From Bacteroidales bacterium (lineage in GTDB: Bacteria > Bacteroidota > Bacteroidia > Bacteroidales > UBA932), in assembly GCA_015060325.1 (NCBI GenBank), contig SUYQ01000009.1, positions 31,775 through 95,774 on the forward strand: a stretch of 64,000 nt of DNA. The letters are read 5' to 3'. Of the stretch, positions 15,512-16,807 are shown in pieces. Each line of letters opens with the position of its first letter. Position 1 is the stretch's first letter. A program made the translations under genes and the position numbers. A model generated the notes under the pieces. That model made no database searches, was not told the DNA's origin, and saw nothing but the letters and a program-made list of their open reading frames with translations.

Positions 15512-16807
15512 ATGATAAACACTGAATATTATAAGGACCTGACCAAGATGAATACCTTCGGAATGAAGGTGAAGGCGCGCTGTTTCATCGAATATGATTC
15601 CGTGGCGGATCTTGTTGATATAGAGTTCTCGGAACTGGCTCGTCCGGTTCTGCATATCGGTGGCGGCAGCAATCTCCTCTTTACCGACGATTTCAAGGGT
15701 ACTGTCCTGCATTCCAAGATCAACTTCATAGAGATCCTGGATGACTGTCATTTCGACCAAGCGAAGCGCGTGGAGAAATCTGTCCTGGTCTCCGTCGGCG
15801 CAGGCGTAGTCTTCGACGACTTCTGCGCCTGGGCTGCAAAGGAAGGACTGTGGGGCGTGGAGAATCTGTCATACATTCCAGGGGAAGTGGGAGCGTCTGC
15901 TGTTCAGAACATAGGCGCGTATGGTGTTGAGGTAAAGGATGTTATCCGTAAGGTGTATTGTTATGATACCGTCGAGGAGGAGTTTGTGAGCTTCGGGGTA
16001 GAGGAGTGTGGCTATGGTTACCGTGATTCGATCTTCAAGAATCCTGATATCAAGGGACGTTACATCGTCACCCACGTTGTGTTTGCTCTCAGTCGCGAAC
16101 CTCAGCCAAGACTGGACTATGGTCATCTTCGTGATGCGGTCGTTCAAGCTGCTGCTCCGACTGCCGGCACGATGGACTGCCAGGATGGACATGCTCCTGA
16201 CTGTCATTTCGACCGAGCAGAGCGAGTGGAGAAATCTATCACACCGTCTCTGATCAGGAAAGTCATCATCAAGATCCGTAAGGAGAAGCTCCCGGAGCCG
16301 TCGGTGATGGGAAGTGCGGGAAGTTTCTTCAAGAATCCAGTCATCACTCTGGAGCATTTCCAGCGCATAGAGGCGGCCGCCAAGGCGGAATTCGGCCCGG
16401 ACTACAAGGTGCCGCATTATATTATTCCGGTAGAGTCCGCTGTCACCCAGTCTGACTCGTCTGTCATTTCTGTTCCATTCGCTTCAGCGACTTCGTCGAT
16501 TTCGAGCGATGCCGGTCACTCTGTCATTGCGAGCGATGCTGGTCATTCTGTCATTTCGAGCGAGGCCGAAGGCCGAGTCGAGAAATCTCCTATGGTGAAA
16601 GTGCCTGCAGCATGGATGATCGAGCAGTGCGGCTGGAAGGGCCGCCGCAGCGGAGGCGCCGCTGTGTATGAAAAACAGCCGCTCGTCATAGTGAATTATA
16701 CAGGAGAAGCATACCCTGAAGAAATCATAGGATTGGAAAAGCGCATCATCGCCTCGGTCAAGGCTAAATTCGGTGTCGAACTACATCCTGAAGTGGAACA
16801 TATTTAA
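15512..16807 (+). CDS. murB: UDP-N-acetylenolpyruvoylglucosamine reductase with repeat-encoded insertions
   Basis: LHIGGGSNLLFTDDFKGTVLH, IPGEVGASAVQNIGAYGVEV, YGYRDSIFK, GSAGSFFKNP, AAWMIEQCGWKG; ATG at 15512 preferred over the TTG at 15506. Confidence 0.93.
   Translation: MINTEYYKDLTKMNTFGMKVKARCFIEYDSVADLVDIEFSELARPVLHIGGGSNLLFTDDFKGTVLHSKINFIEILDDCHFDQAKRVEKSVLVSVGAGVVFDDFCAWAAKEGLWGVENLSYIPGEVGASAVQNIGAYGVEVKDVIRKVYCYDTVEEEFVSFGVEECGYGYRDSIFKNPDIKGRYIVTHVVFALSREPQPRLDYGHLRDAVVQAAAPTAGTMDCQDGHAPDCHFDRAERVEKSITPSLIRKVIIKIRKEKLPEPSVMGSAGSFFKNPVITLEHFQRIEAAAKAEFGPDYKVPHYIIPVESAVTQSDSSVISVPFASATSSISSDAGHSVIASDAGHSVISSEAEGRVEKSPMVKVPAAWMIEQCGWKGRRSGGAAVYEKQPLVIVNYTGEAYPEEIIGLEKRIIASVKAKFGVELHPEVEHI
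15746..15781 (+). repeat. 36-nt TGTC repeat in murB (insertion 1)
   Basis: tgtcatttcgaccaagcgaagcgcgtggagaaatct translated CHFDQAKRVEKS. Confidence 0.9.
16202..16237 (+). repeat. 36-nt TGTC repeat in murB (insertion 2)
   Basis: tgtcatttcgaccgagcagagcgagtggagaaatct translated CHFDRAERVEKS. Confidence 0.9.
16440..16588 (+). repeat. Compound TGTC-repeat cluster in murB (insertion 3) with 27-bp tandem units
   Basis: Units 16508-16534 and 16535-16561 (DAGHSVIAS / DAGHSVISS) ending in tctgtcatttcgagcgaggccgaaggccgagtcgagaaatct. Confidence 0.85.

What the first reader, a model, noticed from the sequence alone, without database searches (positions are those of the whole stretch)
15746..16588. murB carries three independent in-frame repeat insertions
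Two 36-nt copies (CHFDQAKRVEKS at 15746 and CHFDRAERVEKS at 16202) and one compound cluster (16440-16588) interrupt an otherwise canonical MurB. All preserve frame and lie between recognisable motifs. Both 36-nt copies are read in the same frame. Three hits in one essential gene suggests repeated insertion or local spread with purifying selection for frame.
Basis: partly seen in the sequence, partly recalled or inferred. Interest (0 to 1): 0.8.

Follow-up and report, generated by a model that had tools for sequence, protein, structure and literature searches.

The report
Palindromic repeats inside MurB's loops
An essential cell-wall enzyme (MurB) of a herbivore-gut Bacteroidales bacterium has been invaded in frame by short palindromic DNA repeats at three surface loops; the same loops are hit again and again, with different repeats, in related species, so the gene is a natural map of where a vital enzyme tolerates junk insertions.

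Summary
The only murB found in the genome (15512-16807, 431 aa) carries three in-frame inserts. Sites 1 and 2 each hold one 36-nt palindromic repeat. Site 3 holds a 40-nt repeat plus a 27-nt tandem array made from its 5' half. These are interspersed repeats: at least 162 copies of the 36-mer class in 2.47 Mb, none in reversed controls. Their stem is supported by covariation. They match the CGTC/TGTC-tagged REP superfamily, which includes two Rickettsia RPE families, in most tested features. No Y1/RAYT transposase gene is linked to them.
In 37 related species the MurB core keeps its length almost exactly (61/114/60/70 aa; three rows differ by 1-2 aa in the last segment), while the three sites vary 9-68, 8-79 and 6-58 aa and hold different repeats or nothing. 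Sister species with 96-98% core identity differ in inserts, and near-identical metagenome variants differ in array length. dN/dS of the core is 0.03-0.12. AlphaFold puts the inserts in disordered loops.
The three copies belong to three different repeat subfamilies, so repeated independent insertion explains them better than local copying. In-frame REPs in genes are known from Rickettsia and others. What is new is this lineage, this gene, and recurrent refilling of the same three loops.

The parts
15512..16807 (+). murB (UDP-N-acetylenolpyruvoylglucosamine reductase), 431 aa, single copy
   Evidence: NCBIfam/Pfam, single genome match, Foldseek to 4jay/1mbb MurB E 1e-31 to 1e-27
15746..15781 (+). 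Site 1: 36-nt REP, subfamily CCAAGC..GCGCGTGG, read as CHFDQAKRVEKS (residues 79-90)
   Evidence: the only copy of this subfamily in the genome, several copies in congeners G006, G004, G057
16142..16201 (+). Site 2: extra non-REP residues VQAAAPTAGTMDCQDGHAPD in front of the REP
   Evidence: absent from relatives with an empty site, e.g. L102, P0042
16202..16237 (+). Site 2: 36-nt REP of the abundant ACC family, read as CHFDRAERVEKS (residues 231-242)
16440..16588 (+). Site 3: compound insert (about residues 310-359) replacing the DLPDGM turn seen in empty relatives
16499..16568 (+). 27-nt tandem array (9-aa unit GHSVISSxA) built from the 5' half of the 40-nt REP; 1 to 9 units among close variants
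   Evidence: TRF, variant counts, found only here in the genome
16549..16588 (+). 40-nt REP with extended GGCC/GGCC inner stem at the end of the site 3 array
   Evidence: 7 exact copies, 21 at <=3 mismatches in the genome
14035..14061 (+). 27-nt REP in metG (CHSERSEES), in the linker between the anticodon-binding and C-terminal tRNA-binding domains
14118..14145 (+). 28-nt REP in the same metG linker (VISSEVEKS)

Best explanation
murB has been entered at least three separate times by small non-coding palindromic repeats (TGTC-tagged REPs, CGTC superfamily type). Each has a 4-nt tag, a stem starting AT/AT with tandem G·A internal loops, and a 27-, 36- or 40-nt unit. Insertions that kept the frame and fell into three solvent loops of MurB were tolerated and are translated as disordered peptide; all others were purged. 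After insertion some copies grow by tandem duplication of their 5' half (27-nt units at site 3), so loop length keeps changing between close variants. Shown: the repeats, their structure by covariation, the three sites, recurrent filled and empty states, core conservation, different subfamilies. Inferred: that the peptides stay in the mature protein, that they are neutral, and how the repeats move (no linked transposase).
For: Genome-wide family with sharp edges: the 36-mer is nearly invariant inside and unconserved outside. Covariation: 24 double-sided compensatory cells against 5.5 in shuffles (A3), and 22 against 5.3 in 27-mers found with unconstrained stem positions (A4). In 37 species core segment lengths are 61/114/60/70 with three deviations of 1-2 aa in the last segment, while the sites vary 9-68/8-79/6-58 aa. 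Sister pairs with 96-98% core identity differ in inserts, e.g. L090 site 3 DLPDGM against L128 IIPSDTPTVVPSDTSYCHFERPEGVEKSPM. Close variants with 97% core identity carry 1-9 array units. Core dN/dS 0.03-0.12. AlphaFold pLDDT <50 at 80-87, 218-233, 310-356. REPs are depleted from ORFs: 19 observed against 82 expected in 460 kb, P ~ 5e-54. Three different subfamilies.
Against: No experiment shows that the peptides are present in the protein. The murB tree is poorly resolved (4 of 36 inner branches well supported), so the number of independent events is a parsimony minimum (8/9/11 state changes), not a firm count. Some inserts in relatives are not recognisable REPs. The mobilising enzyme is unknown.
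Confidence: 0.88

Rival explanations
1. Local spread: one repeat entered murB and was then copied to the other two loops by recombination or slippage.
For: Intragenic copies cluster: 6 of 10 ORFs with any REP hold two or more, simulated p < 5e-5. The relative P0013 carries a near-identical ~70-aa cassette at sites 1 and 2.
Against: In this genome the three sites hold three different subfamilies, one of them not present elsewhere in the genome. P0042 has site 1 filled with sites 2 and 3 empty.
Confidence: 0.08
2. The loops are functional lineage-specific extensions of MurB (regulation, partner binding) that happen to contain repeat-derived sequence.
For: Site 1 and 2 inserts are common across the clade (27/37 and 24/37), and similar loops are lengthened in other Bacteroidales.
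Against: Sequence, length and repeat family differ even between sister species, and four of 37 species lack all three inserts; predicted disorder.
Confidence: 0.07
3. The repeats are REPs mobilised by an IS200/IS605-type RAYT transposase, as for GTAG REPs.
For: The genome has seven Y1_Tnp matches, one in the window at 27896-28849, and RAYTs could act in trans.
Against: Within about 1.5 kb of 36 Y1 genes from this genus only 1 repeat in 110 kb, against about 20 per 100 kb in the window's genome sample. The CGTC class is reported to lack a linked transposase (PMC3733652).
Confidence: 0.2
4. Assembly or binning artefact, or a decaying pseudogene.
For: The genome is a 43-contig assembly, and repeats are hard to assemble.
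Against: The same pattern appears in dozens of independently assembled MAGs and metagenome proteins; intact ORF, conserved core, dN/dS 0.03-0.12, single murB.
Confidence: 0.02

Closest known systems
CGTC-tagged REP superfamily (Di Nocera et al. 2013, PMC3733652)
   Same: TGTC variant of the tag, stem starting with AT/AT, short palindrome, high copy number, intragenic in-frame copies, no linked transposase, reported from Bacteroidetes
   Different: 3' tail here is CT/CTTT rather than CCA; the stem is interrupted by tandem G·A loops and, in the 36-mer, a bulged T; neighbouring copies are as often same-strand as inverted (17 of 35)
Rickettsia palindromic elements (Ogata et al. 2000/2002; summarised in PMC10969869 and PMC3733652; RPE-4 and RPE-6 are CGTC REPs)
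   Same: Small palindromes inserted in frame in housekeeping genes and apparently translated
   Different: Different phylum; the first-described RPEs are longer (~150 bp, PMC10969869); refilling of the same loops of one enzyme in many species was not found in the papers searched (recB of two Xanthomonas species is the nearest report, PMC3733652)
GTAG REP / RAYT systems (subclasses 2.4 and 2.6 in Bacteroidetes, PMC6006769)
   Same: Short imperfect hairpin repeats, some inside genes
   Different: Tag is TGTC not GTAG, and no RAYT is flanked by these repeats

Membership tests
CGTC REP superfamily | Unpaired CGTC, TGTC or CCTC tag at one end | tested here: met
   TGTC invariant or nearly so in 68 copies and in A3/A4
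CGTC REP superfamily | Stem beginning with complementary AT | tested here: met
   A5-T34 and T6-A33 pairs in 38/38; in A4 these positions were fixed by the search pattern
CGTC REP superfamily | 8-9 bp stem, 4-5 nt loop | tested here: inconclusive
   9 standard pairs in the 36-mer and 7 in the 27-mer, interrupted by tandem G·A, 3-nt loop; the published consensus figure could not be read
CGTC REP superfamily | Unpaired tail, mostly CCA | tested here: not met
   Element ends in CT after the stem; next base mostly A or G
CGTC REP superfamily | No associated transposase gene | tested here: met
   1 repeat in 110 kb around 36 Y1 loci; only Y1 transposases were tested
CGTC REP superfamily | Head-to-head dimers predominate | tested here: not met
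   Neighbours <150 bp apart: 17 same-strand, 14 -+, 4 +-
RAYT-mobilised REP | RAYT gene flanked by the repeat | tested here: not met
Rickettsia RPE-like (in-frame protein-coding palindrome) | Palindrome inserted in frame in conserved genes, absent from orthologues | tested here: met
Rickettsia RPE-like (in-frame protein-coding palindrome) | Insert retained in transcript and protein | not testable with these tools
   needs RNA or protein data
MurB | FAD and MurB_C domains with conserved catalytic residues | tested here: met
   R171, K259, S271 and E427 invariant in A2, S271 aligned to E. coli Ser229; catalytic roles from general knowledge

The most novel reading that the evidence does not exclude
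The MurB loops are actively diversifying length-variable segments: a REP enters, then its 5' half is amplified in multiples of three bases. This changes MurB between strains quickly enough to be a used source of variation rather than neutral noise.
Probability: 0.1. Interest if true: 0.75.

Novelty: new member of a known kind. Interest (0 to 1): 0.5.

Why it matters
It extends in-frame REP invasion, best known from Rickettsia, to gut Bacteroidales and to an essential cell-wall enzyme. The clade gives a natural experiment in which the same three loops were filled, emptied or lengthened in dozens of species while the rest of the enzyme kept its length. That makes two old questions testable: whether such insertions are merely tolerated or become useful, and how transposase-less CGTC repeats spread. 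It also matters for annotation and drug-target modelling, because MurB here is up to about 500 residues instead of about 350.

Tried and rejected
Linked RAYT as mover: rejected by flank scans. Local copying as source of the three sites: disfavoured by subfamily. Known RNA family: only one sub-threshold chance match, outside the gene. Simple single-strand fold energy is not lower than shuffles (z about 0 to +1.5), so structure rests on covariation instead. Counting insertion events on the murB tree gave only parsimony minima because the tree is poorly resolved. Literature searches for the repeat sequence or peptide found nothing, and no paper on REPs in murB was found. Target-site duplications could not be read: the nearest empty sites are too diverged.

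Full report
What is there. The window comes from a 2.47-Mb, 43-contig genome; its murB relatives are Bacteroidales MAGs, mostly from herbivore and ruminant gut. murB runs from ATG 15512 to 16807, 431 aa, and is the only MurB_C match in the genome. Site 1 (15746-15781) and site 2 (16202-16237) are single 36-nt repeats read in the same phase as CHFDQAKRVEKS and CHFDRAERVEKS. Site 3 (16440-16588) is a 27-nt tandem array (16499-16568) that ends in a 40-nt repeat, 16549-16588.

What the repeats are. A de novo word count of 460 kb of this genome shows that its commonest short repeats share one plan. They are 27-nt units (TGTCATxxxGAGCGnAGCGAxxxATCT, with x-positions CCT/AGG, GTT/AAC, TCT/AGA and others), 36-nt units (TGTCATTTCGA[C/G]CGAGCnnAGCGAGT[G/C]GAGAAATCT) and 40-nt units with a longer GGCC inner stem. 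The 36-mer class has 162 copies in the genome and none with the reversed pattern. Its edges are sharp: positions 0-35 are nearly invariant and the flanks are not. The stem is real by covariation. Among 38 variants 98.5% of cells pair, with 24 double-sided changes against 5.5 in shuffles and at most 2 in slid registers. In 27-mers retrieved with free stem positions there were 22 against 5.3. Fold energy alone did not exceed shuffles.

Three subfamilies, three events. The site 1 repeat is the CCAAGC..GCGCGTGG subfamily, which occurs once in this genome, at murB, but repeatedly in congeners. The site 2 repeat belongs to the abundant ACC family. The site 3 repeat is the 40-nt type with 21 copies at up to 3 mismatches. 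A relative, P0042, has the site 1 peptide with sites 2 and 3 empty. This fits separate insertions of different age, site 1 probably the oldest (inference).

The same loops are hit across the clade. In 37 species the four core segments have lengths 61, 114, 60 and 70; only the last varies, to 71 or 72 in three rows. The sites vary 9-68, 8-79 and 6-58 aa and carry inserts in 27, 24 and 13 species; four species have all three empty. Contents differ: [27 protein letters not shown]-type REPs and other palindromic cassettes (HPLAGGG, PYPGVGKC). Well-supported sister pairs with 96-98% core identity differ at one or more sites. L090 and L128 differ by an empty against a filled site 3, and L110 has a clean 105-nt insert relative to L089. 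Metagenome proteins with about 97% core identity to the window's differ in site 3 array length, 1 to 9 units. Outside this clade, other Bacteroidales show long inserts nearly always at sites 1 and 2.

The enzyme is under constraint. Core dN/dS between relatives is 0.03-0.12. An AlphaFold model built from 69 sequences has mean pLDDT 74.8, with pLDDT below 50 at 80-87, 218-233 and 310-356, the three inserts (plus 134-136), and matches solved MurB structures. In E. coli MurB the sites fall at the HDEPDAW, DLTRLDPTTVTP and PNYPQADGSVK loops.

Genome context. In 460 kb, 92 copies were found; 19 lie inside ORFs of 150 aa or more where 82 were expected (P about 5e-54), so insertion in genes is mostly removed. 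ORF calls here are mechanical, and some of the shorter ORFs may be spurious. The survivors cluster, with 6 ORFs holding two or more, and 17 of 19 lie on the gene's own strand. Other genes hit include metG, in its inter-domain linker, tilS, a Dpp5-like peptidase and a FAD-binding oxidase. So murB is one of several tolerant genes, and the best sampled here.

How they move is not known. Y1 transposase genes exist, but the repeats are nearly absent around 36 of them, 1 in 110 kb. This agrees with the report that CGTC REPs lack a linked transposase (PMC3733652). A lead on growth: orphan 5' halves outnumber orphan 3' halves 30 to 5 in the 36-nt class, and 5'-half tandem arrays occur at site 3, in other murBs (P0010), and in intergenic DNA (62721-62792, 11005-11091, L026). 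The 27-mer CCT, GTT and TCT classes show a weaker or opposite asymmetry, so this is not general.

Compared with what is known. In-frame palindromes in genes are known as Rickettsia palindromic elements and as intragenic GTAG/CGTC REPs (PMC10969869, PMC3733652). These repeats meet the tag, AT-stem, intragenic and transposase-less features of CGTC REPs, but not the CCA tail or the predominance of head-to-head dimers. I therefore call them CGTC-type rather than proven members. No description of REPs in murB, or of repeated refilling of the same loops across a genus, was found in the papers searched; that search covers open-licence papers only.

Noticed in passing
window 14035-14145: metG carries two REP-derived inserts in the linker between its anticodon-binding and C-terminal tRNA-binding domains, close together.
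   Followed up: partly
window 27774-28849 and 30659-30758: A Y1 (IS200/IS605-type) transposase gene (27896-28849, minus) has its own hairpin repeats (CTGTCGTCAA...TTGACGTCG) beside it, unrelated to the murB repeats; a candidate RAYT with cognate REP.
   Followed up: no
window 62721-62811 and 11005-11091: 20-nt tandem arrays made of the 5' half of the CCT-family REP; the first ends in a full repeat, like the site 3 array in murB.
   Followed up: partly
window 16824-16926: Downstream of murB an imperfect 50-nt tandem/inverted AAAGCACAAAAACG repeat that could be a terminator or another palindrome family.
   Followed up: no
L026 1100-2000 (genome contig C24): Intergenic array of seven identical 36-nt REPs at 118-170 nt spacing with extra 5' halves between them; part of it reads N.
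   Followed up: no
L079 7622-9502: tilS-like gene of 626 aa with four REP copies, including one just before the SGGxDS motif.
   Followed up: partly
P0013 (528 aa MurB): The same ~70-aa composite cassette sits at both site 1 and site 2 of one MurB, suggesting copying of large cassettes within a gene.
   Followed up: no
window 33279-33545: 144-nt unit repeated 1.9 times at 99% identity.
   Followed up: no
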